The notes below the pieces were generated by a model that was not told the origin of the DNA, searched no databases, and saw only the letters and a program-made list of their open reading frames with translations. Of a stretch of 64,000 nt of DNA, positions 45,098 through 61,797 are shown in pieces; the stretch's first letter is position 1; every line of letters begins with the position of its first letter. The translations under genes and the position numbers were made by a program. Location: assembly GCF_003340475.1 (NCBI RefSeq), contig NZ_QBKA01000002.1:1745501-1809500 (forward strand). The letters are read 5' to 3'. The DNA comes from Alteripontixanthobacter maritimus (GTDB lineage: Bacteria > Pseudomonadota > Alphaproteobacteria > Sphingomonadales > Sphingomonadaceae).

Positions 45098-45192
45098 GTT
45101 CGTAAACTTACTCCGCTCACCCTGCGCTGCCTGAGGGTTGTTTATTTCTTCTAGCTTGGTTCCCTAAAGAAGGACCGGGTTTTATTTGTCTA

Positions 45193-45511
45193 GCCTCAAG
45201 CGCCGGCGGTCGCATTCGCGCTTTTTTTGTTTGGACCCTGCGGGCGCAGGCCATCCGGCCTGCTTGCTTCCTCGCATAAGCTCGGGCGGCCGTTCGGCCT
45301 TGCGGTCCGCTGGTCGCGGACCGAACTTGCGCTTCCCTCGTAACTTTGAAGCCGGTTCTTGGTCACGGCAGTCATAGGCCCAAAGGGCCGCCCGCAGCGA
45401 AGCGAGGAAAGCCTAAGGGGCCGGATGGCCCCGCCGGCGCTTGAGGCCAAACAAAAAAACTCCCGCCGACGCCTGAGGCCAAACAAAAACTCCGGCCGGC
45501 GCTTGAGGCTA
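45193..45511. repeat. Dispersed structured element, copy A (with tandem end repeats)
   Basis: Copy A of the three-copy element, oriented opposite to copies B (52.7 kb) and C (61.6 kb). It holds the shared 19-bp core CGAGCTTATGCGAGGAAGC (here reversed, 45266-45284), the block CGGCAGTCATAGGCCCAAAG, and GGTCCGCTGGTCGCGGACC, a strong hairpin. One terminus carries three head-to-tail copies of a 30-32-bp unit (GCCGGCGCTTGAGG-CCAAACAAAAA). It fills most of the 411-bp gap between hisZ and serA and ends exactly on the serA stop codon. Nothing else coding is seen here. Confidence 0.85.
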
Positions 45512-47113
45512 AAACGACAACGCCTTTACCATCCGCACGCCTTCCAGGCCGCAGGCCTTGTCCACTACTTCGGGTGTGATCGCATCGTCCACGCTGAGCA
45601 ACAGCACAGCCTCGCCGCCAGCCTCGCGCCGGCCCAGATTGAACGTGCCGATATTGATGCCGTTTTCACCCATCAGCGTACCGATCCGGCCGATGAAGCC
45701 CGGCGCATCGTCATTGACGATATACAGCATGTGACCGTCCAATTCAGCCTCGATCCCGACGCCGAAGATTTCGACCAGCCGGGGTGCGCCCGATCCGAAC
45801 AATGTGCCTGCCACGCTGCGATTGCCCTGTTCGGTTTCCACGGTGACACGCAGCAGCGTATGATAGGTACCCTCGCGGCTGTTACGGATTTCGCGCACTT
45901 CGATGCCGCGTTCCTTGGCGAGATAGGGCGCGTTGACCATGTTCACGGTTTCTGAATAGCGCCGCATCACGCCAGCCAGCACGGCGGCGGTAATTGGCTT
46001 GGCGTTCAGCTCTGCAGCGCCGCCTTCCATCTCGATGCTGATCTTGGGCAGGTTTCCATGCGCCAACTGGCCGACGAGCGAACCCAGGCTTTCCGCAAGC
46101 GCCATATACGGCTTTAGCTTCGGCGCCTCTTCCGCCGACAGGCTTGGCATATTGAGCGCGTTGGTCACACCGCCATTGACGAGATAGTCCGCCATCTGTT
46201 CGGCCACCTGCAGCGCCACATTCACCTGCGCCTCGTTGGTGGAAGCGCCAAGATGCGGTGTGCAGATAAAGTTCGGCGCGCCGAACAGCGGATTGTCCTT
46301 GGCCGGTTCCTGCGCGAACACGTCCAGCGCCGCGCCCGCCACATGGCCGCTTTCCAGCGCGTCCTTAAGTGCAGCTTCGTCAATCAGTCCGCCGCGCGCG
46401 CAGTTCACGATGCGGACGCCGGGTTTTGTCTTGGCGAGCGCTTCCCGGCTGAGAATATTGCGCGTTTCGTCGGTCAGTGGAGTGTGAAGTGTGATGAAGT
46501 CGGCACGCGCGAGCAGATCGTCCAGTGTGACTTTCTCGATGCCGACTTCCACGGCGCGGTCCTTGGTCAGGAAGGGATCGAAGGCGATCACCTTCATCTT
46601 TAGGCCGAGCGCACGGCTGGCGACGATCGAGCCGATATTGCCTGCGCCGATCAGGCCCAGTGTCTTGCCGGTTACTTCCACTCCCATGAAGGCGGATTTC
46701 GGCCATTCGCCAGCCTGCGTACGGGTGTTCGCCTGCGGAATTTGCCGGGCCAGCGCCATAATTAACGCGATAGCATGTTCCGCAGTGGTGATGGAGTTGC
46801 CGAACGGGGTGTTCATCACCACCACGCCCTTGCCGCTGGCATAGGGGATATCGACATTATCCACCCCGATGCCGGCGCGCCCGATAACCTTCAGATTAGT
46901 GGCGGCATCCAGTATTTCAGGCGTTACGGTGGTCGAGGAACGGATTGCGAGGCCGTGATAGTCGCCGATGCGGGCAACCAGTTCCTCGGGACTTTCGCCG
47001 GTAATCACATCGACGTCGCAACCGCGTTCTTCGAAAATGCGAGCGGCGTTGGGGTCCATCTTGTCGGAAATTAGGACGCGGGGTTTCTGCGTGGTTTTTT
47101 GGATATCGGTCAT
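45509..47113 (-). CDS. serA: D-3-phosphoglycerate dehydrogenase
   Basis: A 534-residue long-form SerA. The NAD-binding domain has TLGLIGAGNIGSIVASRALG, the catalytic Arg/Glu/His are in NCARGGLIDE and CTPHLGASTNEAQ. An intervening ASB-like domain and a C-terminal ACT domain (MLYIVNDDAPGFIGRIGTLM) follow. It oxidises 3-phosphoglycerate, the first step of serine synthesis; the ACT domain would sense serine. Directly downstream of serC on the same strand with 105 bp between, occupied by a palindromic repeat. Confidence 0.96.
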   Translation of the reverse strand: MTDIQKTTQKPRVLISDKMDPNAARIFEERGCDVDVITGESPEELVARIGDYHGLAIRSSTTVTPEILDAATNLKVIGRAGIGVDNVDIPYASGKGVVVMNTPFGNSITTAEHAIALIMALARQIPQANTRTQAGEWPKSAFMGVEVTGKTLGLIGAGNIGSIVASRALGLKMKVIAFDPFLTKDRAVEVGIEKVTLDDLLARADFITLHTPLTDETRNILSREALAKTKPGVRIVNCARGGLIDEAALKDALESGHVAGAALDVFAQEPAKDNPLFGAPNFICTPHLGASTNEAQVNVALQVAEQMADYLVNGGVTNALNMPSLSAEEAPKLKPYMALAESLGSLVGQLAHGNLPKISIEMEGGAAELNAKPITAAVLAGVMRRYSETVNMVNAPYLAKERGIEVREIRNSREGTYHTLLRVTVETEQGNRSVAGTLFGSGAPRLVEIFGVGIEAELDGHMLYIVNDDAPGFIGRIGTLMGENGINIGTFNLGRREAGGEAVLLLSVDDAITPEVVDKACGLEGVRMVKALSF

Positions 47114-47135
47114 GAGATTGCTCCGGATATCGTCG

Positions 47136-47206
47136 TTCCCGCGAAGGCGAGAACCCAGTGCGGCGAAAGTACCGCGTTTGGTTCTGGGTCCCCGCTTTCG
47201 CGGGGA
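47136..47206. repeat. Palindromic repeat between serC and serA
   Basis: TCCCGCGAAGGCGAGAACCC (from 47137) is an imperfect reverse complement of GGGTCCCCGCTTTCGCGGGG (ending about 47205), with a 25-nt spacer. The motif CCCGCGAAAGCGGG next to ACCCAG is a widespread sphingomonad-type intergenic palindrome. It would form a strong mRNA hairpin within the serC-serA transcript. Confidence 0.8.
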
Positions 47207-47218
47207 AGACGCAAAATA

Positions 47219-48373
47219 TTACTGGTTGCGAAGGCTTTCGTAAGCCCATTCGATCCACGGCAGCAGGCGTTTCAGATCCTCCTGCTCCACGGTTCCGCCG
47301 CACCAGATGCGCAAGGAGGGCGGCGCATCGCGGTAGCCATTGAAATCGTAGCCGACGTCGTGTTCGTCCAGCATCGCCGCGATCTTCTTGGGCACACCGA
47401 CCTGGTCTTCAGCGGACAGGCTTTCGTACCAGTCGCCCTGGAACACCATGCAAACGCCGGTATTGGTGCGCTGCGCCGGATCGGCGACCATATTGCGCAT
47501 CCAGGGCGTGGCTTCGATCCAGTCCGTCACGATCTTCGCATTGGCATCGGCGCGTTCAAACATCGCCTTGCGCCCACCGATCGACTTCGCCCATTCCAGC
47601 GCGAGGATGTAATCCTCCGTCGCCAGCAGGCTGGGCGTGTTGATGGTCGCACCTTCGAAGATCGCGCGGTTCAGCTTGTCGCCCTTTTTCAGGCGGAACA
47701 GCTTAGGGAGCGGCCATGCAGGATCGTAGCTCTCGATCCGCTTCACCGCCTTGGGGCTGAGCACAAGCATCCCATGCTGCGCTTCGGAGCCCATGACCTT
47801 CTGCCAGCTATAGGTTGTGGCATCGAGCTTCGCCCAGTCCATTTCCTGCGCGAAGACAGCGCTGGTCGCATCGTTGACGGCAAGGCCCTCGCGGCCCTGT
47901 TCCAGCCAATCGGTATTGGCGATTTTCGCACCCGAAGTCGTGCCGTTCCAGGTAAAGACAACATCGTTGCCCTGCGGGATCTGCGTAAGATCGGGAATTT
48001 CCCCGTAATCGGCGTCGAGCACTTGCAGATCGGGCAGTTTCAGCTGCTTGACCGCGTCCTGGATCCAGACATTGCCGAAGCTTTCCCATGCGGCGACTGT
48101 GGCCGGACGCGCACCCAGCATTGTCCACATCGCGCATTCCAGCGCGCCAGTATCCGAACCCGGCATAATGCCGACAAGATAATCGTCGGGCACGCCCAGC
48201 AATTCGCGCGACAGGTCGATGGCGTATTTCAGCCGCGCCTTGCCGACGGCGGAACGGTGCGACCGGCCCAGAGCTTCGGTTTTGAGATTGGATGCGGACC
48301 AGCCGGGAAATTTGGCAGTGGGTCCGGACGAAAAGAAAGGGCGCTCGGGTTTGAGCGTCGGCATATCGGTCAT
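47219..48373 (-). CDS. serC: Phosphoserine aminotransferase
   Basis: A 384-residue class V aminotransferase of the alphaproteobacterial SerC type. FFSSGPTAKFPGWSASNLKT, LGRSHRSAVGKARLKYAIDL, GIMPGSDTGALECAMW and the PLP-lysine region TTYSWQKVMGSEAQHGMLVL are present. It converts 3-phosphohydroxypyruvate, the SerA product, to phosphoserine. ATG 48373 follows a GGAGAG ribosome site that lies inside a hairpin. Transcription runs serC to serA, probably to hisZ. Confidence 0.94.
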   Translation of the reverse strand: MTDMPTLKPERPFFSSGPTAKFPGWSASNLKTEALGRSHRSAVGKARLKYAIDLSRELLGVPDDYLVGIMPGSDTGALECAMWTMLGARPATVAAWESFGNVWIQDAVKQLKLPDLQVLDADYGEIPDLTQIPQGNDVVFTWNGTTSGAKIANTDWLEQGREGLAVNDATSAVFAQEMDWAKLDATTYSWQKVMGSEAQHGMLVLSPKAVKRIESYDPAWPLPKLFRLKKGDKLNRAIFEGATINTPSLLATEDYILALEWAKSIGGRKAMFERADANAKIVTDWIEATPWMRNMVADPAQRTNTGVCMVFQGDWYESLSAEDQVGVPKKIAAMLDEHDVGYDFNGYRDAPPSLRIWCGGTVEQEDLKRLLPWIEWAYESLRNQ

Positions 48374-48378
48374 GTATT

Positions 48379-48494
48379 CTCTCCTCACAGAGAGCTCGCG
48401 CGGCGTTGGGACCGCGTGGCCCGTCGCCGCCACTAGACTTATGCCGGACCGAGTCAATCATTCCCTTCGCACCTGCGGTAGAAAATGCATTATA
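48379..48494 (-). promoter_or_regulatory. serC leader: promoter and folded 5' UTR (serC-RNA-motif-like)
   Basis: On the minus strand a perfect -10 box TATAAT lies at 48494-48489, giving a 5' UTR of roughly 105 nt. The leader holds a stable hairpin at 48430-48400 (GCGGCG/CGCCGC outer stem, GGGCC..GGTCC-type inner stem). A second hairpin lies at 48394-48379 (CTCTC/GAGAG, 6-nt loop) whose 3' arm contains the Shine-Dalgarno of serC. A conserved cis-acting RNA upstream of serC (the serC motif) has been described in alphaproteobacteria; identity with it needs a covariance search. Confidence 0.55.
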
Positions 48495-48551
48495 AGTGTT
48501 CGCGCGCCTCCCTCTCGCCAATGTCGTGCGCAGGCACTATGGCTGGGCCGG

Positions 48552-49700
48552 ATGGACATCACCGACCTGCGCATCGCCCTGTTCAGCGGCAATTACAACT
48601 ATACCCGCGACGGGGCGAATCAGGCGCTGAACCGGCTGGTCGGCTACCTGCTGCGGTCCGGCGCGCAGGTCCGCGTTTATGCCCCCACCGTGGCGGAACC
48701 GGACTTCGAACCGACGGGCGATCTAGTATCGGTACCATCCGTACGCTTTCCCATGAAGGGCCGCGGCGAATATCGCTTTCCATTGCCGCTATCGGCGGAA
48801 AACAAGACCGATATCGATATTTTTGCACCCAATGTGGTGCATATCGCCTCGCCCGATATGAGCGGCCATGCAGCGCTGCGCTATGCACAGGCTCGCAATA
48901 TTCCAGTACTGGCATCGGTGCACACGCGCTTCGAAACCTATCCCCGCTATTACCGGCTGGGCTTTATCGAACCTGCTATCGTGGCCATGCTGCGCCGGTT
49001 CTACAGCCGCTGCGACGCGCTGGTCGCACCTTCCCCCAGCATGATCGATACCTTGCGGCAGCAGGGCATGAACGACGATATCAGCCTATGGACACGCGGG
49101 GTGGATCGCGCGGTTTTCCATCCGGACAAACGCGACATGACCTGGCGGCGCGAACTGGGGCTGTCTGATGAGGATGTCGCCATCGTGTTTCTCGGCCGGC
49201 TGGTGGCGGAAAAGGCGCTGGACGTGTTCGCCGGTTCGATCGACAGACTGCGCAGCGCAGGCGTACCGCACAAGGTTCTGGTGATCGGCGATGGTCCGGA
49301 ACGCGCCAGCTTCGCCAAGGCGCTGCCGGGTGCAGTCTTCGCTGGGTTTCAGACAGGCGGCTATTTGGGGCGCGCGCTGGCCAGCGGCGATGTGTTCTTC
49401 AATCCGTCGATTACCGAAACCTTTGGCAACGTTACGCTGGAGGCGATGGCATGCGAACTGCCCTGCGTCGCTGCAGCCGCCACGGGTAGCGCCAGTCTGG
49501 TCGACGACGGCGTTTCGGGCCGACTGGTGCAGCCGGGCGACACCGCCGCCTTTGCCGATGCGCTAGCCCCCTATTGCACCGATCCGCAGCTACGCCGGTC
49601 GCATGGTCGGGCCGGAGAAAAGCGCGCGCAAGACTATGATTGGGACGCGATCAACCAGACTGTGGCGGATAGCTATCTACGATTGGCAGCAAACGCTTAG
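48552..49700 (+). CDS. Glycosyltransferase family 4 (mannosyltransferase-like)
   Basis: A 382-residue GT-B retaining glycosyltransferase. The N-domain has LRIALFSGNYNYTRDGANQA, VVHIASPDMSGHAALRYAQA and PVLASVHTRFETYPRYY. The C-domain has IVFLGRLVAEKALDVFAGSI, VLVIGDGPER and the nucleotide-sugar EX7E-like SITETFGNVTLEAMACELPC. Closest in feel to diacylglycerol/lipid alpha-mannosyl- or glucuronosyl-transferases, so a role in glycolipid synthesis is plausible but not shown. ATG 48552; the gene overlaps nothing but faces the serC promoter. Confidence 0.87.
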   Translation: MDITDLRIALFSGNYNYTRDGANQALNRLVGYLLRSGAQVRVYAPTVAEPDFEPTGDLVSVPSVRFPMKGRGEYRFPLPLSAENKTDIDIFAPNVVHIASPDMSGHAALRYAQARNIPVLASVHTRFETYPRYYRLGFIEPAIVAMLRRFYSRCDALVAPSPSMIDTLRQQGMNDDISLWTRGVDRAVFHPDKRDMTWRRELGLSDEDVAIVFLGRLVAEKALDVFAGSIDRLRSAGVPHKVLVIGDGPERASFAKALPGAVFAGFQTGGYLGRALASGDVFFNPSITETFGNVTLEAMACELPCVAAAATGSASLVDDGVSGRLVQPGDTAAFADALAPYCTDPQLRRSHGRAGEKRAQDYDWDAINQTVADSYLRLAANA

Positions 49701-49741
49701 CCCAGCCGATGATAAAATAGTCGTATCCGGATCGGCTTATC

Positions 49742-50215
49742 CTATCGTAGTACGCCCGCTGTCGTCATTCGGCGCGCATACCAGGCTAGGCCCAGCGTCA
49801 CTGCCCAGATAATCGCTGCAAAGATCATTTGTCCCGGCCCGCCAAGCGCATCGGGCATTGCCCCCGAAAACTGGTAAATGGTCGTCACCAGCAGACCGGC
49901 CAGAGCGACGATGAACGCATAAAACGCGAACCGGCTGCGCAACAGCAACAGCAAGGATCCCAGCACCGCGCCCCACACGCCAAACGCCCAGCCGGCTTCC
50001 GCCCATACCGGGAAGCCACCAAGATAGGCCAGCATCTGGTCGACCGAAATGTCGTAATTGCCAGTCATCGATGCGATGTAGTCGCGGTTGCGCAATTGAG
50101 ACTGGAGATAATCGTTCGCACCGAAGGCGTTGAACAGCAGGGAAACCAGACCGATTACCCACAGGTGCCACGGCGTCCTTTTCGTACCAAGCCGCCTTTG
50201 TTCGCTATGTTTCAT
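49742..50215 (-). CDS. Four-helix integral membrane protein of unknown function
   Basis: A 157-residue membrane protein. After a basic N-terminus (MKHSEQRRLGTKRTPW), about four hydrophobic segments can be seen: WVIGLVSLLFNAFG, AFGVWGAVLGSLLLLL, FYAFIVALAGLLVTTIY and FAAIIWAVTLGLAWYA. NDYLQSQLRNRDYIASM is a polar loop after the first helix. Similar proteins are annotated only as hypothetical in sphingomonads. ATG 50215 has GAGAGG upstream. Divergent from rarA. Confidence 0.75.
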   Translation of the reverse strand: MKHSEQRRLGTKRTPWHLWVIGLVSLLFNAFGANDYLQSQLRNRDYIASMTGNYDISVDQMLAYLGGFPVWAEAGWAFGVWGAVLGSLLLLLRSRFAFYAFIVALAGLLVTTIYQFSGAMPDALGGPGQMIFAAIIWAVTLGLAWYARRMTTAGVLR

Positions 50216-50313
50216 TTCGCTACCTCTCCCAAAGTTTCGAACGCAGACAAGATCTATCATTTTTGCAGACGGCGTGCATGGAAAAAACTGTCCAGCGCCC
50301 CTATCTGGCGCAC

Positions 50314-51642
50314 ATGGTCGATCTGTTTGCCGACGACGTTCCCGACAATATCATGCCCCGGTCCGCTGGTCCGGATGCACCGCTGGCCGACCGGCTGCGA
50401 CCGGAAAATCTTGCCGAGATTATCGGCCAAGAGCACCTGACCGGGCCGGAGGGCGCAATCGGACGCATGGTGGCGGCAGGCCGGTTGTCCTCCATGGTCC
50501 TGTGGGGGCCGCCGGGCACCGGCAAGACCAGCATCGCCCGCCTGCTCGCCGCCGAAGTGGGGATGCGGTACCATGCAGTCAGCGCGGTATTTTCGGGCGT
50601 GGCGGATTTGAAGAAAGCCTTTGCAGAGGCTGACCGCGCTGCCCAGGCTGTTTCTGGGAACGGCGGGCGTACATTGTTGTTCGTGGATGAGATCCACCGC
50701 TTCAACCGCGCCCAGCAGGACGGTTTCCTGCCGTTCGTCGAACGCGGCACAGTCACGCTGGTGGGCGCGACGACCGAGAATCCCAGCTTCGAACTGAACG
50801 CCGCGCTTCTCAGCCGCGCGCAAGTGCTGATCCTGCACCGGCTGGATGCCGCTGCGCTGGAGAAATTGCTGGCGCGGGCGGAAGCGTTGCAAGGTCCCTT
50901 GCCCCTAACGGACGAGGCACGCGACGCGCTGGTCGCCAGTGCCGATGGCGATGGCCGCTTCCTGCTCAACCAGGCGGAAACGCTCTATAATGCGAAGCTG
51001 ACGGACACGCTCGACCCGGCAGCGCTCGGCGCGTTTCTACAGCGCCGCGTGGCGGTGTACGACAAGGACCGCGAGGGGCATTACAATCTGATTTCCGCGC
51101 TGCACAAGGCGGTGCGCGGGTCCGATCCGCAGGCGGCGCTGTATTACATGGCGCGGATGCTGGTGGCGGGTGAAGAGCCATTGTTCCTCGCCCGGCGGCT
51201 GGTGCGGATGGCGGTGGAGGATATCGGGCTGGCCGATCCGGCTGCCTTGACGCAGTGCATGGCGGCGAAGGATGCCTATGAATTTCTCGGCAGTCCCGAA
51301 GGCGAGTTGGCACTAGTGCAGGCCTGCCTCTATCTTGCCACCGCGCCGAAATCGAACGCGGTCTATAAGGCGCAAAAGGCCGCCTTTCGCAGCGCCAAGG
51401 ACACCGGCAGCCTGATGCCGCCTATGAACATCGTCAACGCGCCGACCAAGCTGATGAAGGATGTCGGATACGGCAAGGGATACACTTACGATCACGATGC
51501 GGAAGGCGGGTTTTCGGGCGACGATTACTGGCCGGAAGAAATGACGCCGCAGACCTATTACACGCCCGTGGAACGCGGCTTCGAACGCAAGATCGCCGAA
51601 CGGATTGCCTATTGGAACAAGCTGCGCGGAACGCGCGAGTGA
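50314..51642 (+). CDS. rarA: Replication-associated recombination protein A (MgsA/RarA)
   Basis: A 442-residue AAA+ ATPase related to the clamp loader and WRNIP1. Walker A MVLWGPPGTGKTSIARLLAA, Walker B LLFVDEIHRFNRAQQDGFLP and sensor LVGATTENPSFELNAALLSR are present. The C-terminal tetramerisation domain has EGHYNLISALHKAVRGSDPQ and VYKAQKAAF. It acts at stalled forks. ATG 50314 (MVDLFADD) fits family starts; ATG 50278 is a possible longer start. Coupled to the following gene. Confidence 0.95.
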   Translation: MVDLFADDVPDNIMPRSAGPDAPLADRLRPENLAEIIGQEHLTGPEGAIGRMVAAGRLSSMVLWGPPGTGKTSIARLLAAEVGMRYHAVSAVFSGVADLKKAFAEADRAAQAVSGNGGRTLLFVDEIHRFNRAQQDGFLPFVERGTVTLVGATTENPSFELNAALLSRAQVLILHRLDAAALEKLLARAEALQGPLPLTDEARDALVASADGDGRFLLNQAETLYNAKLTDTLDPAALGAFLQRRVAVYDKDREGHYNLISALHKAVRGSDPQAALYYMARMLVAGEEPLFLARRLVRMAVEDIGLADPAALTQCMAAKDAYEFLGSPEGELALVQACLYLATAPKSNAVYKAQKAAFRSAKDTGSLMPPMNIVNAPTKLMKDVGYGKGYTYDHDAEGGFSGDDYWPEEMTPQTYYTPVERGFERKIAERIAYWNKLRGTRE

Positions 51643-51650
51643 CGCCTGTG

Positions 51651-52535
51651 ATGAGAACGCGGCGCTTTCGGCAATTCCTGGCCATCGACTGGTCGGGCGC
51701 GGCCGGGGAACGCCATGCGGGGATTGCGCTTGCGGTCTGCGATGAAAGGGGCGGACCGCCCGTGCTGGTGGAGCGCGGGCGCAAGTGGTCGCGCGCCGAA
51801 GTGCTGGCAATCCTGCGCGATTTGCCGGCGGATACTCTGGTAGGCATGGACCTCGGCATCGCCCTGCCCTTCGCCGATTGCGGCGCGTATTTTCCCGGCT
51901 GGGCGGACGGTCCCGCTGACGCCAAAGCATTGTGGGCGATAATCGATCAAATCTGCGCCGGCGATCCCCATCACGGCGCCGCCAGCCTGGTCGATCACCC
52001 CGATCTGAGTCCATTCTTCCGCCGTCATGGCGGGCGCGAAGGCGCGAAATTCCGCTGTGACGGGGCCGAACATGGCAAAGGACGCTTCCGCGTCACCGAA
52101 CACGCGCAAGCAGCGCAGGGGTGCAAACCCTACAGCAATTTCAATCTCGTGGGCGCGGCGCAGGTGGGCAAATCCAGCCTGACTGGCATGCGGGTGTTGC
52201 ACGCATTGAGCGGCGCGGTGCCGGTCTGGCCAATCGATCCGCTGCCTGCGACCGGCTCCGTCATCGTCGAGATTTACACTGCGCTTGCGGCGAGAGAAGC
52301 TGGGCGTTCGGTCGGCCGCAGCAAGATGCGCGACCACGCAGCGCTGGCACATGCGCTGGCTGCATTCGGCTCGCCGCCCGCCGCGGGACATGGCGCGGTG
52401 GACGATCACAGTTCCGATGCTCTTCTCACCGCCGCATGGCTGCGCCACGTCGCGCAGGATCCGACAAGATGGCAACCAGAAGGCCTTACTCCGCAAATTG
52501 CCCGAACCGAGGGCTGGACCTTCGGCGTAGTTTGA
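51651..52535 (+). CDS. DUF429-like predicted RNase H-fold protein
   Basis: A 294-residue protein with QFLAIDWSGAAGERHAGIAL near the start, LVGMDLGIALPFAD in the middle and VDDHSSDALLTAAWL near the end. The spaced aspartates in strands are typical of the RNase H/actin-like fold of DUF429-type proteins, often predicted nucleases. GCKPYSNFNLVGAAQVGKSS is a further conserved-looking block. No membrane or signal segment. ATG 51651 is used; GTG 51639 would overlap the rarA stop. Role unknown; coupling with rarA hints at DNA metabolism. Confidence 0.7.
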   Translation: MRTRRFRQFLAIDWSGAAGERHAGIALAVCDERGGPPVLVERGRKWSRAEVLAILRDLPADTLVGMDLGIALPFADCGAYFPGWADGPADAKALWAIIDQICAGDPHHGAASLVDHPDLSPFFRRHGGREGAKFRCDGAEHGKGRFRVTEHAQAAQGCKPYSNFNLVGAAQVGKSSLTGMRVLHALSGAVPVWPIDPLPATGSVIVEIYTALAAREAGRSVGRSKMRDHAALAHALAAFGSPPAAGHGAVDDHSSDALLTAAWLRHVAQDPTRWQPEGLTPQIARTEGWTFGVV

Positions 52536-52561
52536 CGCAAAGGGCGCGGCGGACACAACGT

Positions 52562-52634
<73 letters not shown>

Positions 52635-52637
<3 letters not shown>

Positions 52638-52656
52638 TTTTGCTCTCGCAAAATGG
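52635..52656 (+). terminator. Hairpin directly after tRNA-Thr
   Basis: CCATTTTGC (52635-52643) and GCAAAATGG (52648-52656) form a perfect 9-bp stem with a TCTC loop, using the CCA end of the tRNA as its first arm. A short TTCATTTGTT follows. Likely a tRNA transcript terminator or processing signal. Confidence 0.55.
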
Positions 52657-52669
52657 TTCATTTGTTCAG

Positions 52670-52900
52670 CCTCAAGCGCCGGCGGTCGCATGCGCTCCCT
52701 TAGGCTATCCTCGCGCTTCGCGCTGCGGGCGGCCCTTTGGGCCTATGACTGCCGTGACCTGGAACCGGGTGCTACTTCAATAGCGTAGCGCAAGTTCGGT
52801 CCGCGACCAGCGGACCGCAAGCGCGAACGCGCGCCCGAGCTTATGCGAGGAAGCCAAGCGAGCGAATGCGAGCGCCCGGCGTTTGAGGGTCTAAACAAAA
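52670..52900. repeat. Dispersed structured element, copy B
   Basis: Copy B, about 230 bp, with ends CCTCAAGCGCCGGCGGTCGC and GCGAGCGCCCGGCGTTTGAG that are near inverted repeats. It includes GGGCGGCCCTTTGGGCCTAT, GGTCCGCGACCAGCGGACC (hairpin) and the core CGAGCTTATGCGAGGAAGC at 52836-52854. It fills most of the 392-bp stretch between tRNA-Thr and the ABC-F gene. The remaining 130 bp up to 53030 holds no gene I can support. Confidence 0.88.
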
Positions 52901-53029
52901 ACGCCCGGATGGTTTCCGCCCACAGGGCCCCAAACAAAAAAGCGACTGAAACGCGCCACCTCCCCAAATCCGCACCACCCACCAATCACCCCCTACCCGC
53001 ACCACAAGCGCAATGCTAAGCACCCATCC

Positions 53030-54910: not shown

Positions 54911-55006
54911 CCATCGCGCAAACCCGCCCGCCCTTGACCCGTTCATCGGCAGTCGCCAGCACTGATTGCAGAAAACAGGTTTCGAATCGCAATGGGAGTT
55001 GCCCGT

Positions 55007-55783
55007 ATGGCTGAAAACAGCACCACCGAAGAACTGACCACCCGTGTGGATGACGGCGTTCTGATCATCACCATCAACCGACCCGACGCCAGAAACGCGA
55101 TGAACAAGGCGGCGGCAGAGGGCATCGCGGCGGCGCTCGACCGGCTCGACAGCGAAGACGATCTGCGCGTCGCCATCTTAACCGGCGCCGGCGGCACCTT
55201 CTGTTCCGGCATGGATCTGAAAGGCTTCCTGCGCGGCGAAAGCCCCAGCGTCGAAGGGCGCGGTTTTGGCGGTCTGACCGAGAAGAAGCCGGTCAAGCCG
55301 CTGATCGCTGCCGTCGAAGGATATGCGCTGGCAGGCGGTCTGGAACTGATGATCGCCTGCGATCTGGTGGTGGCGCATTCGGGCGCGAAATTCGGTATTC
55401 CGGAAGCGAAGCGCGGGCTCGCGGCGGCAGCGGGCGGTCTGATGGTGTTGCCCGACCTCATCCCGCACAAGGTGGCGATGGAGCTGGCGCTGACCGGCGA
55501 TTTCATTGACGCCCAGCGCGCCTATGATCTGGGACTGGTCAACCGCGTTACCGATGGTTCGGTGATGGATGCAGCCATGGAACTCGCCCGCTCGATCACG
55601 GCGAATGGCCCAATCGCGGTGCGCGTGTCGAAACAGATCATGGACGAATCGCGGTCCTGGCCGCGCGACGAGCGTTACACGCGCCAGGCCAAGCTGCTGC
55701 CGGAAGTGTTCATGTCGCCCGACGCGCAGGAAGGCAGCAAGGCCTTCGCCGAGAAGCGGAAGCCGAACTGGACCGGGAAGTAA
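55007..55783 (+). CDS. Enoyl-CoA hydratase/isomerase family protein
   Basis: A 258-residue crotonase. VLIITINRPDARNAMNKAAA starts the fold and FCSGMDLKGFLRGE is the oxyanion loop region. Both catalytic glutamates are present: AGGLELMIACDLV and FGIPEAKRGLAAAAGG. It would hydrate enoyl-CoA intermediates in beta-oxidation. ATG 55007 is chosen because GGGAG lies 8 bp upstream; ATG 54992 is also in frame. Five bases separate it from the CaiB gene. Confidence 0.9.
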   Translation: MAENSTTEELTTRVDDGVLIITINRPDARNAMNKAAAEGIAAALDRLDSEDDLRVAILTGAGGTFCSGMDLKGFLRGESPSVEGRGFGGLTEKKPVKPLIAAVEGYALAGGLELMIACDLVVAHSGAKFGIPEAKRGLAAAAGGLMVLPDLIPHKVAMELALTGDFIDAQRAYDLGLVNRVTDGSVMDAAMELARSITANGPIAVRVSKQIMDESRSWPRDERYTRQAKLLPEVFMSPDAQEGSKAFAEKRKPNWTGK

Positions 55784-55788
55784 CGCAG

Positions 55789-56937
55789 ATGAACGGCGCG
55801 CTCGACGGCATTCGCATCGTGGAATTCGCCGGCATCGGGCCGGGGCCGTTCTGCGGCATGATGTTGGCCGATCACGGCGCCGAAGTCATCCGCATCGATC
55901 GCGCGAGCGGCGGGCGCGGCGGATCGACCCCGCTTTCGACCAAAGACGTTCTGGCGCGGGGCCGCAAATCCATCGCGCTGAACCTGAAGTCGGCTGAAGG
56001 CGTGGCACTCGCGCGCAAAATCTGCGCCAGCTCGGACGGGATTATCGAAGGCTTCCGCCCCGGCGTCATGGAGCGGCTCGGCCTTGGCCCCGATGAGCTG
56101 CTCGGCGACAATCCCGATCTCGTCTACGGCCGGATGACCGGCTGGGGGCAGACCGGCCCATATGCCCAGGCCGCCGGGCACGACATCAACTATATCGCGC
56201 TGGGCGGTGCACTGGCGCATTTCGGTCGCGCTGGTGAGAAACCCACGCCGCCGATCAACATGGTCGGCGATTTCGGCGGGGGCGGGATGATGCTCGCTTT
56301 CGGGATGGTCGCGGCGCTGCTGGCCGTGAAAAACGGTGCGAAGGGCCAGGTGATCGACGCCGCCATGACGGAAGGCACCGGCCTCCTGATGGGCATGATC
56401 CACGGCATGAAGAACATGGGCGTGTGGAGCGAGGATGTGGGTACCAACATGCTCGATACCGGCGCGCATTTCTACGACACTTATGAAACTGCCGATGGCA
56501 AATTCGTCTCCATCGGCAGCATCGAACCGCAATTCTATGCGCAACTGCTGGAACTGACGGGACTGTCGGACGATCCCGACTTCAAGGCACAGCACGACCG
56601 CGCGAAATGGCCCGAACTGAAGGACCGACTGACCGAGGTTTTCAAACGCAAGACCCGCGATGAATGGTGCAGCATCATGGAGCATACCGATGTCTGCTTC
56701 GCACCGGTCCTGACCATGACCGAGGCAGCGGCGCATCCGCATAATGTGGCGCGCGAAAGCTTTGTCCAAGTGGCAGGCGATCCGCAGCCCGCACCTGCCC
56801 CGCGCTTCTCCGTTACGCCCACCGCCACTCCGCGCCCCGCCCCACTGCCGGGCGACGATACGGATGAAATTCTGGCCTCGCTCGACATGGGCGATGCCGA
56901 CATCGCCGCGCTCAGAGACGCTGGCACCATTTCCTGA
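55789..56937 (+). CDS. CaiB/BaiF CoA-transferase family, AMACR-like
   Basis: A 382-residue class III CoA-transferase-fold protein. AGHDINYIALGGALAHFGRA and INMVGDFGGGGMMLAFGMVA match alpha-methylacyl-CoA racemase, with the His/Asp base pair (H-D and GDFGGG) conserved. Such enzymes epimerise 2-methyl-branched acyl-CoAs before beta-oxidation of isoprenoid or branched acids. The alternative, CoA transfer, cannot be ruled out. Sandwiched between hydratase and dehydrogenase genes. Confidence 0.87.
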   Translation: MNGALDGIRIVEFAGIGPGPFCGMMLADHGAEVIRIDRASGGRGGSTPLSTKDVLARGRKSIALNLKSAEGVALARKICASSDGIIEGFRPGVMERLGLGPDELLGDNPDLVYGRMTGWGQTGPYAQAAGHDINYIALGGALAHFGRAGEKPTPPINMVGDFGGGGMMLAFGMVAALLAVKNGAKGQVIDAAMTEGTGLLMGMIHGMKNMGVWSEDVGTNMLDTGAHFYDTYETADGKFVSIGSIEPQFYAQLLELTGLSDDPDFKAQHDRAKWPELKDRLTEVFKRKTRDEWCSIMEHTDVCFAPVLTMTEAAAHPHNVARESFVQVAGDPQPAPAPRFSVTPTATPRPAPLPGDDTDEILASLDMGDADIAALRDAGTIS

Positions 56938-56947
56938 AGGACGCACC

Positions 56948-58090
56948 ATGCTCGATACCAGCAAACGCATCTGTTACACCGACGACCACGAGGCTTTCCG
57001 CGATACCGTGCGCAAAGTGTTCGATGAACACATGGCTCCGCATCTCGACAAGCATGAAGCGGAAGGCATTGTCGGGCGCGAGGCATGGCACGCATTGGGC
57101 GAGGCAGGCATGTTATGCCCCACGATCAGCGAAGAAAATGGTGGCCTCGGCCTCGATTTCGGGTTCAACGCCGTTATCAATGAAGAACTCGCTTATCTCG
57201 GATCGAGCGCGGGCTTCACACTCCAGAACGACATCACTTGTAATTACTTCGAACGGCTCGGCACCGAGGATCAGCGCGCGAAATATCTGCCCGGCATGAT
57301 CACCGGCGACGTGATTACCGCCATCGCCATGACCGAACCGGGGGCAGGCAGCGACCTGCAAGGCATCCGCACCACGGCGAAGCGCGATGGCAGCGATTTT
57401 ATCATCAACGGGTCCAAGACCTACATCACCAACGGCCAGAACGCCGATTGCGTGATCGTGGTGGCGAAGACCGATCCCGAAGCGGGCGCGAAAGGCACCA
57501 GCCTGCTGCTGGTGGATGCCGACACGCCGGGTTTCCAGAAAGGCCGCAATCTCGACAAGATCGGCCAGCACGCCGCCGATACCAGTGAGCTGTTCTTCGA
57601 CGACGTGCGCGTGCCGGCGGAAAACCTGCTCGGCGGCGAAGGGCGCGGGTTCGTGCATCTGATGGAGGAATTGCCGCAGGAACGCCTCTCGATCGCCATC
57701 GGCTGCCAGGCCGGCATGCAGCGTGCTTTCGATGAAGCGGTGACGTTTACCAAGGACCGCAAGGCGTTTGGGAAGACCGTGTTCGAATTTCAGAACACCA
57801 AATTCACGCTGGCGGATATGGCGGCGGAATTGCAGGTTGGCTGGGCGCATCTCGACTGGTGCATCCTGCGCCATTTGAAGGGCGAGCTGACCACGGCGGA
57901 AGCCAGCGTATCGAAGCTGTGGCACACCGAGAAGGGCTGGGATGCCATGGACACCTCGCTCCAGCTGCATGGCGGCGCGGGGTACATGAACGAATATGCC
58001 ATTGCCCGGCTATGGCGCGATGCGCGGGTCAGCCGGATCTACGGCGGCACCAGCGAGATCATGAAGGAAGTCATCAGCCGCGCAATCTGA
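56948..58090 (+). CDS. Acyl-CoA dehydrogenase, long-chain type
   Basis: A 380-residue FAD acyl-CoA dehydrogenase. TAIAMTEPGAGSDLQGIRTT and FIINGSKTYITNGQNADCVI are FAD/substrate signatures. The C-terminal motif is RIYGGTSEIMKEVI rather than YEGT, so the catalytic base is not in the medium-chain position. ELPQERLSIAIG supplies the glutamate used by the LCAD/isovaleryl group. With the adjacent AMACR-like and hydratase genes it suggests branched or long-chain acyl-CoA degradation. ATG 56948, AAGG upstream. Confidence 0.93.
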   Translation: MLDTSKRICYTDDHEAFRDTVRKVFDEHMAPHLDKHEAEGIVGREAWHALGEAGMLCPTISEENGGLGLDFGFNAVINEELAYLGSSAGFTLQNDITCNYFERLGTEDQRAKYLPGMITGDVITAIAMTEPGAGSDLQGIRTTAKRDGSDFIINGSKTYITNGQNADCVIVVAKTDPEAGAKGTSLLLVDADTPGFQKGRNLDKIGQHAADTSELFFDDVRVPAENLLGGEGRGFVHLMEELPQERLSIAIGCQAGMQRAFDEAVTFTKDRKAFGKTVFEFQNTKFTLADMAAELQVGWAHLDWCILRHLKGELTTAEASVSKLWHTEKGWDAMDTSLQLHGGAGYMNEYAIARLWRDARVSRIYGGTSEIMKEVISRAI

Positions 58091-58145
58091 CGGGTGGAAA
58101 TTCAAGCGCCAATTACTTACATTGGTGTCAGCAAGGGATAGCATT

Positions 58146-59672
58146 ATGGCCACCGCAACAGCATCAGCAGACACCCCGCGGCCGGACATAGATGTCGCGA
58201 TCGTGGGCGCGGGCCTGTCCGGCATCGGCATGGCGGCGCATATGCGGATGAAGTGCCCGGGCCGCAGCTTCGCCCTGCTCGAACGGCGCGAAAGCATTGG
58301 CGGGACATGGGATCTGTTCCGCTATCCCGGCGTGCGTTCGGATAGCGACATGCACACGCTCGGCTTCGAGTTCGAACCCTGGAAACATGAAAAGACCATC
58401 GCGGATGGTCCCGCCATCCTGGAATATCTCGACCGCATCGTAGACGAACGCGACATCCGCCGGCACATCCGGTTCGGCCAGAAAGTCCTGACCGCCGACT
58501 TCGACAGCGATACCGCGCTATGGACCGTCACCACCCAAACCGACGATGGCGAACGCAGCACGCTGACCGCACGTTGGTTCTACCTCGCCAGCGGCTATTA
58601 TGATTACGACGAACCCTATGACGCGCAGCTGCCCGGTATCGAAAGCTTCGAGGGCGAGGTCTTGCACCCGCAATTCTGGCCGGAACATCTCGATTATTCG
58701 GGCAAGCGGATCGTCGTTGTGGGTTCGGGCGCGACCGCCGTCACCATCGTGCCGTCCATGGCACTGGGCGACAAATCCGCCGCTCACGTGACCATGCTGC
58801 AACGCACCCCGACTTGGATGTTCAGCCGCCCGGCGAAAGATGGCGTGGCCAATTTTCTGCGCAAGGTGCTGCCTGAAGAACTGGCCTACCGCATCACGCG
58901 TTGGAAAAACGTGGCGATGCAGGATTTCAGCTTCAAGATGGCGCGCAACAAGCCGCAAAAGGTGAAGGACGCGCTGACCAAGCGGATCACTAAGTCACTC
59001 GGCAAGAATTACGACGAAAAGGCCTTCACGCCGCCTTACGATCCGTGGGACCAGCGGCTTTGCTTGGTGCCGGACGACGATCTTTTCGAGGCGATGAACG
59101 CGGGCAAGGCCAGCATCGTGACCGACCAGATCGATCGCTTCACACCCACTGGCGTACAACTGCGTTCCGGCAAGGAGCTGAAGGCCGATATTGTCGTTAC
59201 CGCCACCGGGCTGACGCTGGCCATGGCGGGCAAGATCGACGTACGGCAGGACGGGGAACCCGTAAAATTCGAAGACCGGTTCTATTACAAGGGCTGCATG
59301 TTCTCCAACCTTCCTAATCTGGCAGTGGTGTTCGGATATTTGAACGCCAGCTGGACGTTGCGGGCGGACATCAATTCCGATTACGTGTGCCGCGTGCTCA
59401 ACCGGATGGAAGAAACCGGCAGCCAGATTGCCGTGCCGGTGCTCACTCCGCAGAACGAGGCAGCGCTGGAAGAGGACGATATCTTCGACTTCTCATCAGG
59501 ATATATCCAGCGATCCAAGCACATCATGCCTAAGAACGCAGTTGGCTTCCCGTGGCGGCTCAATCAGGAATATCGCAAGGACAAGCGCCAGATGAAGGAA
59601 AGCCCCATCGACGATGGTTTGCTCGAATTCAGGCGTGTGAGCGCGGACGAAACGCTGGAGCCTGCAGAGTAG
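58146..59672 (+). CDS. FAD-containing (Baeyer-Villiger-type) monooxygenase
   Basis: A 508-residue class B flavoprotein monooxygenase. Two Rossmann fingerprints, AIVGAGLSGIGMAAHM (FAD) and IVVVGSGATAVTIVPSMA (NADPH), flank FEGEVLHPQFWPE, a version of the FxGxxxHxxxW monooxygenase motif. FRYPGVRSDSDMHTLGFEFE is typical of the group acting on ketones and steroids. It inserts oxygen next to a carbonyl, forming esters or lactones, or N/S-oxygenates. Follows the acyl-CoA operon by 55 bp; AAGGGA precedes ATG 58146. Confidence 0.9.
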   Translation: MATATASADTPRPDIDVAIVGAGLSGIGMAAHMRMKCPGRSFALLERRESIGGTWDLFRYPGVRSDSDMHTLGFEFEPWKHEKTIADGPAILEYLDRIVDERDIRRHIRFGQKVLTADFDSDTALWTVTTQTDDGERSTLTARWFYLASGYYDYDEPYDAQLPGIESFEGEVLHPQFWPEHLDYSGKRIVVVGSGATAVTIVPSMALGDKSAAHVTMLQRTPTWMFSRPAKDGVANFLRKVLPEELAYRITRWKNVAMQDFSFKMARNKPQKVKDALTKRITKSLGKNYDEKAFTPPYDPWDQRLCLVPDDDLFEAMNAGKASIVTDQIDRFTPTGVQLRSGKELKADIVVTATGLTLAMAGKIDVRQDGEPVKFEDRFYYKGCMFSNLPNLAVVFGYLNASWTLRADINSDYVCRVLNRMEETGSQIAVPVLTPQNEAALEEDDIFDFSSGYIQRSKHIMPKNAVGFPWRLNQEYRKDKRQMKESPIDDGLLEFRRVSADETLEPAE

Positions 59673-59729
59673 GCCCGCGCGCTGCGTTCCCGCTTTCCTA
59701 TCGGGTCCGCTTCGCCTACCCATCGACCG

Positions 59730-60491
59730 ATGACCGACCCCGCCCGTATCTACACCGCCGCCTTAATCGTGATCGGGGACGAGATCCTATCCGGCCGCAC
59801 CCACGACAAGAACATCGCACAGATTGCCAGTTGGCTGCAGGTGCAGGGTATCCGCCTCGTCGAAGTGCGCGTGGTTGCCGATATTGAGGAGCAGATCGTT
59901 GGCGCGGTAAACGCCCTTAGGCCCGCAAACGACTACCTGTTCACGACCGGCGGCATCGGGCCTACCCATGACGATATTACTGTGGATGCGGTGGCGACAG
60001 CGCTGGGCGTGGACGTAGTGATTCACCCGGAGGCGCGCACCATCCTCGAACGGTATTATGCCGACAAGGGCGGGCTGAACGAAGGGCGTCTGCGCATGGC
60101 GCGTGTGCCTGCCGGGGCAGAGTTGATCCCCAATCGCATGTCCGGCGCGCCCGGCATCCGGCTTGGTAATATCTTCTTGATGGCAGGCGTCCCGCATATC
60201 ACCGCAGGAATGCTCGACGCGCTGACTGGCGAGCTGGAAGGCGGTGCGCCCTTGCTGGCCGAAACGGTCGGTTGCTGGGTCGCCGAAAGCGAAGTTGCCG
60301 ACCTGCTGCGTACGGTGGAGCGGGCGCACGAGGCTTGCCAGATCGGCAGCTACCCATTCTTTCGCGAAGGCCGGGTCGGCGCGAATTTCGTAATCCGATC
60401 AACCGATGCGGGGGATTTGGACAGCTGCATGCATACGCTGTGCGACGGGCTGAGCGCGGCCGGGTACGACTTCACGCCGGGCGGTATTTGA
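59730..60491 (+). CDS. Molybdopterin-binding / CinA N-terminal-domain protein
   Basis: A 253-residue MoaB/Mog-fold protein. TAALIVIGDEILSGRTHDKN is the start of the fold and YLFTTGGIGPTHDDITVDAV is the signature shared by CinA N-domains and MoaB. MAGVPHITAGMLDALTGELE follows. There is no C-terminal nicotinamide-nucleotide amidase domain, so it is not full CinA. Biochemical role unknown (FAD/ADP-ribose pyrophosphatase has been reported for CinA N-domains). Start ATG 59730. Confidence 0.86.
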   Translation: MTDPARIYTAALIVIGDEILSGRTHDKNIAQIASWLQVQGIRLVEVRVVADIEEQIVGAVNALRPANDYLFTTGGIGPTHDDITVDAVATALGVDVVIHPEARTILERYYADKGGLNEGRLRMARVPAGAELIPNRMSGAPGIRLGNIFLMAGVPHITAGMLDALTGELEGGAPLLAETVGCWVAESEVADLLRTVERAHEACQIGSYPFFREGRVGANFVIRSTDAGDLDSCMHTLCDGLSAAGYDFTPGGI

Positions 60492-60557
60492 CGGTCCTTT
60501 AACCCGCACGGCCTATATCGCAGGTTCCCGTCAACGGAGCCGCACGGCGTTTGCGCC

Positions 60558-61532
60558 ATGACCAAAGTCTACATCACCATCGACACCGAATACTCAGCCG
60601 CTTTGGCTATTGCTGCGGCAGGCGGCGGACAGGCGGACAATTACGCGCGTTCCATCGCCTGTGAAACGCCCGGCGGGGCGGTCGGTATCGAATACCAGAT
60701 GGATGTGATGGACGCGCATGGGTTGAAAGGCGTGTTCTTCGTCGATCCTCTGCCCGCTCTGCTGTGGGGCACAAAGGCGATTGCCGACATCGTGCAACCG
60801 ATCGTCGGCCGCGGCCATGACGTGCAGCTTCACATCCACACCGAATGGTTGGAAATTGCCGGTAATCTGTCGTTTCTCGACGATCGGACGGGCCGCAATA
60901 TGGCCGATTTCAGCTATGACGATCAGCTGGAAATCCTGCGCTATGGACGGCGCATTCTGCTTGAGGCTGGCGCGCCTACCCCGGTTGCGTTCCGGGCTGG
61001 GAATTACGGCGCAAATGACGATACCTTGCGGGCGTTGCGCTGGGCCGGCCTTCGATACGACACCAGCCATAGCCCCGCCATTCCGGATGGCGATTGCTCA
61101 ATCTCACTGGGCGCGGACGACCAACGCACGGTCAATCATGCCGGTGCGATCGAAGTTCCGGTCGGCTGCATCAGGAGCTTCGGTAGGTCACTCCGCCATG
61201 CGCAGGTCACCGCTCTCTCGGCGTGGGAGCTGCTTGCTGCCATCCGGACGGCACGCGATGGAGGGGCGGCAAGCTTCACCGTGGTATCACACAGTTTCGA
61301 ACTGCTGAGCCGCGATCGCAGCACCATCAACCGCATCGTGAAGCGCCGCTTCGAACGATTCTGTGCAGGCATCGCCCGGATGCAGGGGGTCACCACCGGC
61401 ACCTATGCCGATGATCCGCCGCAAGTTGCCCGCGCAGGCGGTCCCCGGCCGGTCCTTCCCCATAGCGAGGTTCGCACCGGCTTGCGGGTGGCAGAGCAGC
61501 TGGCAGGCAATATTCTCTACGGCCGCGGTTGA
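60558..61532 (+). CDS. Polysaccharide deacetylase (NodB-like)
   Basis: A 324-residue carbohydrate-esterase-4-like protein. VYITIDTEYSAALAIAA holds the catalytic Asp, RGHDVQLHIHTEWLEI carries the zinc histidines and PVAFRAGNYGANDDTLRALR matches motif 3. No signal peptide is visible, which is unusual for cell-wall deacetylases and suggests a cytoplasmic polysaccharide or lipid-linked substrate. It is followed by a strong terminator. Confidence 0.85.
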   Translation: MTKVYITIDTEYSAALAIAAAGGGQADNYARSIACETPGGAVGIEYQMDVMDAHGLKGVFFVDPLPALLWGTKAIADIVQPIVGRGHDVQLHIHTEWLEIAGNLSFLDDRTGRNMADFSYDDQLEILRYGRRILLEAGAPTPVAFRAGNYGANDDTLRALRWAGLRYDTSHSPAIPDGDCSISLGADDQRTVNHAGAIEVPVGCIRSFGRSLRHAQVTALSAWELLAAIRTARDGGAASFTVVSHSFELLSRDRSTINRIVKRRFERFCAGIARMQGVTTGTYADDPPQVARAGGPRPVLPHSEVRTGLRVAEQLAGNILYGRG

Positions 61533-61535
61533 CGC

Positions 61536-61572
61536 AAGAAGGGCCGAGGTTTCCCCCGGCCCTTGTTTTTTT
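61536..61572 (+). terminator. Intrinsic terminator after the deacetylase gene
   Basis: AAGGGCCG (61539-61546) pairs with CGGCCCTT (61557-61564), loop of 10 nt, followed by GTTTTTTT. It runs straight into copy C of the dispersed element. Confidence 0.9.
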
Positions 61573-61797
61573 GGCCTCAAACGCCGGCGCTCGCATTCGC
61601 TCCTTTAGGCTTCCGGCCTGCCGGCCGGCGTGCAGTCGCACGCTGGACTGCCGTCACCAGGAACCGTGTGCTCCACGTCTAGCGCTTCACTAGTCCCGTT
61701 TGCGACCAGCAAACCAAAGGCCGAACGGCCGCCCGAGCTTATGCGAGGAAGCCAAGCGAGCGGATGCGAGCGCCCGGCGTTTGAGGGTCCAAACTAA
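61571..61797. repeat. Dispersed structured element, copy C
   Basis: Copy C, about 225 bp, lies tail-to-tail between the deacetylase (+) and rplA (-). Ends CCTCAAACGCCGGCGCTCGC and GCGAGCGCCCGGCGTTTGAG are near inverted repeats. The core CGAGCTTATGCGAGGAAGC is at 61734-61752 and the block ACTGCCGTCACCAGGAACCG corresponds to copy B. Internal palindromes CCGGCCTGCCGGCCGG and GGCCGAACGGCC are present. The element stops just before the rplA stop codon. Confidence 0.88.

What the first reader, a model, noticed from the sequence alone, without database searches (positions are those of the whole stretch)
45193..61797. Three-copy dispersed structured element of 225-320 bp
Intergenic sequences at 45193-45511 (inverted), 52670-52900 and 61571-61797 share order and sequence. 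All have near-inverted-repeat ends (CCTCAA.CGCCGGCG / CGCCCGGCGTTTGAGG), the exact 19-bp core CGAGCTTATGCGAGGAAGC, and blocks around ACTGCCGT-ACC and GACCAGC. Copies A and B also share the hairpin GGTCCGCGACCAGCGGACC. Each sits at a gene end: just at the serA stop, after tRNA-Thr, and just before the rplA stop. No ORF is carried. This looks like a non-autonomous mobile element or a structured transcript-end module, and I do not know a named family for it.
Basis: seen in the sequence. Interest (0 to 1): 0.72.

Follow-up and report, generated by a model that had tools for sequence, protein, structure and literature searches.

The report
Hairpin-chain mobile repeat of Alphaproteobacteria
The three look-alike stretches are copies of a small, gene-less jumping element built from a chain of folded hairpins, present at least 24 times in this genome and related to elements found across many Alphaproteobacteria, and no library or paper searched here had a name for it.

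Summary
The exact 19-mer recurs in this 2.68-Mb genome at 25 places (<=2 mismatches; reversed control 0; two places look like one copy at a contig end), all intergenic. Each full copy is two inverted copies of an ~80-nt unit, "U", around a variable spacer, with sharp ends TTTTTTGTTTAG-CCTCAA ... TTGAGGG-CTAAACAAAAA. U is a chain of hairpins; the "exact core" is itself a hairpin with tandem G.A mismatches. A covariance model (98% of cells paired, 144 double changes, covariation 0.62 against 0.15 shuffled) finds U in 54 of 121 genomes of the family and in 14 other families of the class. In two distant genomes ~145-bp relatives with different ends (TACCAAG...TTGGTA) have 3-bp TNA target-site duplications (12 of 18, permutation p<5e-5), so the lineage is mobile. 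The serA-hisZ site holds no U in relatives. No RAYT transposase is in the genome and REP tags (GTAG, CGTC) are absent. Best reading: a non-autonomous MITE/REPIN-like element moved by an unidentified transposase. A linked terminase-small-subunit-like gene family is an unexplained lead. No Rfam family and no published description were found.

The parts
45222..45459 (-). Copy A, full composite element (inverted pair of U with T-run/A-run ends); between serA (stop 45509-45511, - strand) and hisZ (start 45097)
   Evidence: site without U in relatives
45237..45310 (-). Right unit U of copy A (hairpin chain with core 45266-45284)
   Evidence: covariance model R1, 75.6 bits
45367..45446 (+). Left unit U of copy A, inverted
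   Evidence: R1, 42.3 bits, E=1.4e-7
45192..45219 (+). Solitary end fragment (CCTCAAGCGCCGGCGGTCGCATTCGC) next to copy A
   Evidence: sequence
45461..45511 (-). Two further end fragments (CCTCAGGCGTCGGCGGGAG, CCTCAAGCGCCGGCC) with T-runs, running into the serA stop codon
   Evidence: sequence
52658..52901 (+). Copy B, full composite element, about 20 bp after tRNA-Thr (52562-52637)
52797..52817 (+). hp1 of copy B: CGGTCCGC-GACCA-GCGGACCG
52810..52888 (+). Right unit U of copy B: hp2 52821-52832, core hairpin 52835-52850 (CCGAGC-TTAT-GCGAGG), hp3 52858-52873 (GCGAGC-GAAT-GCGAGC), tail CGCCCGGCGTTTGAGGG
   Evidence: R1, 88.6 bits, E=2e-18
52670..52753 (-). Left unit of copy B, inverted and decayed
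   Evidence: R1, 19.6 bits, E=0.027; sequence comparison
61563..61795 (+). Copy C, full composite element, after the intrinsic-terminator-like GGGCCGAGG..CCCCCGGCCC-TTGTTTTTTT and ending 2 bp before the rplA stop (61798-61800)
61708..61786 (+). Right unit U of copy C
   Evidence: R1, 86.6 bits
61575..61652 (-). Left unit of copy C, inverted and decayed
   Evidence: R1, 18.1 bits, E=0.06

Best explanation
A non-autonomous mobile element of the MITE/REPIN type. Shown: the unit U is an ~80-nt chain of short hairpins (hp2, core hairpin, hp3, usually preceded by hp1); in this genome it mostly occurs as an inverted pair around a variable spacer, so that the whole copy folds into one long hairpin; it carries no gene; copies lie in intergenic DNA, often within a few bases of a stop codon. 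Inferred: an enzyme encoded elsewhere copies it, probably recognising the folded ends or folded single strand, and selection removes insertions into genes. In distant relatives insertion makes a 3-bp TNA duplication; TNA includes stop codons, so an insertion there can leave the gene end intact. In this lineage most copies look old (one half decayed) and the mobilising enzyme appears absent or unrecognised.
For: 25 core matches in the own genome, reversed control 0, all outside predicted genes. Two nearly identical composites ~100 kb apart (L013, L014) indicate recent copying. Left half is an inverted U; L315 shows both halves nearly intact. Sharp ends over 50 composites: T fraction rises at -12 and A fraction falls at +14 relative to the CCTCAA/TGAGG anchors. 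serA-hisZ is adjacent in most of 30 relatives and the R1 model finds U there only in this genome. In G163/G131 the same core sits in ~145-bp elements with abrupt ends TACCAAG...TTGGTA and exact 3-bp TNA duplications in 12 of 18, permuted mean 5.2, maximum 11 in 20,000. Covariation in U: 98.1% of cells paired, 144 double changes, score 0.624 against 0.150 shuffled and <=0.076 slid. Fold z-scores -7.1 to -7.9 for the window copies.
Against: No transposase is identified. PF01797 (RAYT/IS200) is absent from the own genome and PF13340 (an IS5-type transposase domain) from the two TSD-bearing genomes, which are drafts. No target-site duplication is detectable around the 50 composite Sphingomonadales copies, so the duplication evidence comes only from distant relatives with different ends. 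The site comparison is between genera, so loss in the relatives is not strictly excluded, and a decayed U below the model's reach could be missed (L226 may hold one). Some positions are shared between species (L015/L042/L101; L044/L051/L052/L100/L102), so part of the family is inherited vertically.
Confidence: 0.72

Rival explanations
1. A structured RNA module at transcript ends: transcribed from the upstream gene, the hairpin chain stabilises or attenuates mRNA 3' ends, and this is why it is kept.
For: Copies lie at gene ends; in 17 of 24 classified own places the left neighbour reads toward the core strand, 8 are convergent and only 3 divergent; folds are far more stable than shuffles; pairing is conserved; REPs in other bacteria have such effects (PMC5082802).
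Against: No hairpin followed by a U-run in either direction (T-run at the 5' side, A-run at the 3' side); occurs in both orientations and in divergent contexts; U not found at the serA site of any relative; discrete mobile copies with TSD in relatives.
Confidence: 0.15
2. A classical REP/REPIN population moved by a RAYT (Y1 tyrosine transposase) that has since been lost from this genome.
For: Inverted doublets with a spacer, intergenic, no TSD in Sphingomonadales copies, as in REPINs (PMC3116915); Y1_Tnp genes exist in 22 of 121 genomes of the family.
Against: No Y1_Tnp in the own genome although the controls ring; the Y1 loci tested (L124-L133) have no U at E<0.5; no GTAG or CGTC tag; U is a multi-hairpin unit of ~80 nt, not a 20-40 bp palindrome; the distant relatives have a TSD.
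Confidence: 0.1
3. The compensatory changes do not reflect selection on a fold but quasi-palindrome correction (template switching during replication), which makes hairpin arms match.
For: Nine fully complementary hp3 stems around a nearly constant GGAT loop within one genome is what rapid arm-to-arm correction would give; mechanism known from other bacteria (own knowledge).
Against: The core hairpin keeps its two tandem G.A mismatches in almost every Sphingomonadales copy (although copies were found through this core), which correction would erase; unpaired linkers (AAGCCAAG, CGCCCGGCG-YTGAGGG) are conserved across families.
Confidence: 0.2
4. U is the cis-acting partner of the dispersed terminase-small-subunit-like HTH genes, as REPs are of RAYTs or as a pac site is of TerS.
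For: 27 of 80 core-bearing loci of relatives hold such a gene; all but one lie within ~1.2 kb of U in loci of mostly 8 kb; several genes have U-like matches on both sides (L044, L049, L059, L068, L077, L096; some weak); gene-side check 3 of 29.
Against: The own genome has 6 such genes and none lies near U; many of the 27 loci are orthologous; no catalytic domain is known in these proteins; chance expectation was estimated, not computed.
Confidence: 0.06

Closest known systems
REPINs / BIMEs (REP doublets)
   Same: Inverted pair of a palindromic unit around a spacer, intergenic, many copies, no gene, folds into a long hairpin
   Different: Unit is ~80 nt with several hairpins rather than 20-40 bp; no GTAG head; no RAYT in the genome; distant relatives show a TSD
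CGTC-tagged REPs of Alphaproteobacteria (PMC3733652)
   Same: Alphaproteobacterial, dimeric, no associated transposase gene known
   Different: No CGTC tag; multi-hairpin unit; an element that looks like a CGTC REP (CGTCATTGCGAG..GAAGCAATCC) occurs in this genome as a separate insert (in L002)
Bacterial MITEs
   Same: Short, gene-less, sharp ends, inverted terminal sequences; TNA duplication in the distant relatives
   Different: No parent IS found; Sphingomonadales copies lack a detectable TSD; conserved compensated inner hairpins are not expected of a plain MITE
Br-REP1 / Br-REP2 of Bradyrhizobium (PMC5082802)
   Same: Repeat with several stem-loops at gene 3' ends, some convergent
   Different: Different sequence; not tested for homology beyond inspection of the published consensus
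Rickettsia palindromic elements
   Same: Alphaproteobacterial structured palindromic repeats of 100-150 bp
   Different: Compared from memory only; no sequence relation shown

Membership tests
REP/REPIN | 20-40 bp palindrome with GTAG (or GTGG) head | tested here: not met
   Consensus of U has no such head; unit is ~80 nt
REP/REPIN | Inverted doublet around a spacer | tested here: met
REP/REPIN | Cognate RAYT (Y1 transposase) flanked by the repeat | tested here: not met
   PF01797 absent from own genome; Y1 loci of relatives L124-L133 without U at E<0.5
CGTC-tagged REPs | Terminal CGTC (TGTC/CCTC), stem 8-9 bp, loop 4-5, CCA tail | tested here: not met
   Tag and tail absent from the consensus of U; the composite does end in CCTCAA, but not as tag plus single stem
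MITE | Short, non-coding, terminal inverted repeats, sharp ends | tested here: met
MITE | Target-site duplication of fixed length | tested here: inconclusive
   Met in distant relatives (3-bp TNA, 12 of 18); not detected in 50 Sphingomonadales composites
MITE | Ends match an autonomous IS in the genome | tested here: inconclusive
   PF13340 transposases absent in G163/G131; other IS families not surveyed
Known structured RNA family | Match to an Rfam model | tested here: not met
   No hit on the elements in the window or in 16 loci of relatives

The most novel reading that the evidence does not exclude
U is an old folded nucleic-acid module of Alphaproteobacteria that is used as a substrate by more than one mobilisation route (TACC..GGTA ends with TNA duplication in some families, T-run ends without duplication in Sphingomonadales), recognised through its hairpins by an undescribed enzyme, possibly together with the dispersed terminase-small-subunit-like DNA-binding proteins.
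Probability: 0.15. Interest if true: 0.75.

Novelty: new variant of a known kind. Interest (0 to 1): 0.52.

Why it matters
It appears to be an undescribed repeat family spread across at least 15 families of a major bacterial class, with an unusually clear signature of structure (many fully compensated stems inside one genome) and no known transposase. It makes a concrete question testable: which enzyme moves hairpin-rich DNA that lacks a RAYT? It may also explain spurious C-terminal tails and small ORFs in sphingomonad annotation (frames reading ...RPSLCEEAK..., seen in the ORF clusters).

Tried and rejected
RAYT/Y1 partner: absent in own genome and not linked in relatives. IS5-type partner by PF13340 in the TSD-bearing genomes: none. 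Rfam: none. TSD scan around Sphingomonadales composites over all offsets and lengths 2-9: nothing convincing. Phage carriage: no match in phage records; four viral contigs with the core, not examined for prophage origin. Gapped IUPAC pattern for the unit returned nothing and was replaced by a covariance model. Cognate repeats around the own genome's TerS-like genes: none found. The Myxococcales hit L089 shares only the 19-mer and is dismissed as chance.

Full report
Observation. The three copies are present at the stated places. The 19-mer CGAGCTTATGCGAGGAAGC is exact in all three; genome-wide its inner 18 bases occur 25 times with up to two mismatches against zero for the reversed pattern. 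L001 and L016 look like the same copy near a contig end, so about 24 are independent. A gene caller trained on the window placed no gene over any of them; contexts are 9 tandem in the core direction, 8 convergent, 4 tandem opposite and 3 divergent (one of them the doubtful L001), and one unclassified.

Anatomy. Reading in the core direction, a full copy is TTTTTTGTTTAG-CCTCAAGCGCCGGCG ... TGACTGCCGTGACC-variable spacer-hp1-GCAAG-hp2-core hairpin-AAGCCAAG-hp3-CGCCCGGCGTTTGAGGG-CTAAACAAAAA, with an alternative tail CGCCCGCAGGGTCC in about half of the own copies. The right half is a unit of about 80 nt that I call U. The left half is an inverted, usually decayed U: the model finds it in all three window copies, strongly in A and weakly in B and C, and a contig from a viral collection (L315) shows both halves nearly intact. 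Over 50 composites the T-run and A-run have sharp outer edges. The core is itself a hairpin, CCGAGC-TTAT-GCGAGG, in which two tandem G.A mismatches replace two pairs; in other families the same place reads CGCGCC-TTAT-GGCGCG or other perfect stems. The window copies fold with z-scores of -7.2 to -7.9 as RNA, and copy B with -7.1 as DNA.

Conserved pairing. On 54 aligned copies, two helices (hp2 and hp3, 11 pairs) have 98.1% of cells paired, 144 cells changed on both sides and a covariation score of 0.624 (shuffled 0.150; slid partners at most 0.076). Inside the own genome alone hp3 occurs with about nine fully complementary stems around a nearly constant GGAT loop. Quasi-palindrome correction could produce part of this without selection and is kept as a rival.

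Distribution. The 19-mer occurs in 81 stretches of a collection of 85,000 species, all Sphingomonadales except one chance match. The covariance model R1 hits 54 of 121 genomes of the family, with 36, 30 and 28 matches in the richest three (G036, G115, own); these are lower bounds because at most 38 candidates per genome were scored. In a class-wide sample 23 of 289 genomes match at E<=1e-4, in 14 families besides the own. No phage record matches; seven near-megabase Sphingobium plasmids do.

Mobility. Two composites ~100 kb apart in the own genome are nearly identical (L013, L014). At the serA-hisZ site most of 30 relatives keep the two genes adjacent and R1 finds U only in the own genome; this is a comparison between genera, so gain is the parsimonious rather than the only reading, and one relative (L226) has a sequence that may be a decayed left half. 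In the distant genomes G163 and G131 the same core lies in elements of 144-146 bp (one of 156) with abrupt ends TACCAAG...TTGGTA. Of 18 copies with both ends, 12 have the same three bases on either side, all 12 of the form TNA (TTA, TAA or TGA), against a permuted mean of 5.2 and a maximum of 11 in 20,000 permutations; no copy has four equal bases. A TNA target includes stop codons, which may help explain positions at gene ends. Composite Sphingomonadales copies have no detectable duplication. The two kinds of copy thus share the inner module but not the ends.

Transposase. PF01797 is absent from the own genome while five of 14 control genomes ring. It is present in 22 of 121 relatives, but the ten such loci tested hold no U at E<0.5 (best 13.5 bits, E=0.74). 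PF13340 is absent from G163 and G131. The mobilising enzyme is therefore unknown.

A linked gene family. Among 80 core-bearing loci of relatives, 27 hold a gene for an HTH protein that matches only the PHROG for a terminase small subunit (phrog_4044, E 6e-14 to 4e-22; weak sub-threshold HTH matches in Pfam). All but one lie within about 1.2 kb of the core in loci of mostly 8 kb, and several have U-like matches on both sides, some of them weak. From the gene side, 3 of 29 such loci have U within 1.5 kb. The own genome has six such genes, none near U. Many of the 27 loci are orthologous, so independence is limited. I report this as a lead.

Comparison with the known. The organisation is that of a REPIN (PMC3116915) and the size and ends are those of a MITE, but the defining features of REPs (short single palindrome, GTAG or CGTC tag, RAYT) were tested and not met (PMC3733652, PMC2817692). 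Rfam has no match, and the paper searches found no description of this sequence, which covers open-access papers only.

Verdict. A real, apparently undescribed family of hairpin-chain, non-autonomous mobile elements; a new variant of a known kind. Mobility of the lineage is well supported; the enzyme and any function for the host are not known.

Noticed in passing
L026, L029, L044, L049, L051, L052, L059, L068, L077, L094, L096, L098, L100, L102 and others: Terminase-small-subunit-like HTH genes (phrog_4044) lie close to U in 27 of 80 loci of relatives, some with U-like matches on both sides; unexplained.
   Followed up: partly
L118, L120, L121 (own genome), upstream of the TerS-like genes: A shared TTTCCTAC-like motif shortly before the start codon of stand-alone TerS-like genes (seen by eye, not tested); the copy in L123 is followed by what reads as a large terminase subunit.
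   Followed up: no
L002 (G000:C2:116928): The spacer of this copy carries an insert CGTCATTGCGAGCGTAGCGAAGCAATCC..., which looks like a CGTC-type REP nested in the element.
   Followed up: no
L004, L005, L019, L020 (own genome): A short insert containing TGTCCTGAGCCTGTCGAAGGGG between hp1 and hp2; related CCTGAGC-TGTCGAAGG motifs also appear in the serA-hisZ spacers of relatives L226 and L232.
   Followed up: no
window 45192-45219 and 45461-45511; also L013, L024: Short tandem end fragments (GCCTCAAGCGCCGGCGGGAG-TTTTTTGTTT) next to full copies, possibly deletion derivatives or nested insertions.
   Followed up: no
L257, L261, L269, L283 (G163): Several copies in G163 have the part after AAGCCAAG replaced by a shared sequence GGGCAAGATCGTTTGGTCTTGAAC..., suggesting insertion of another element at hp3.
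   Followed up: no
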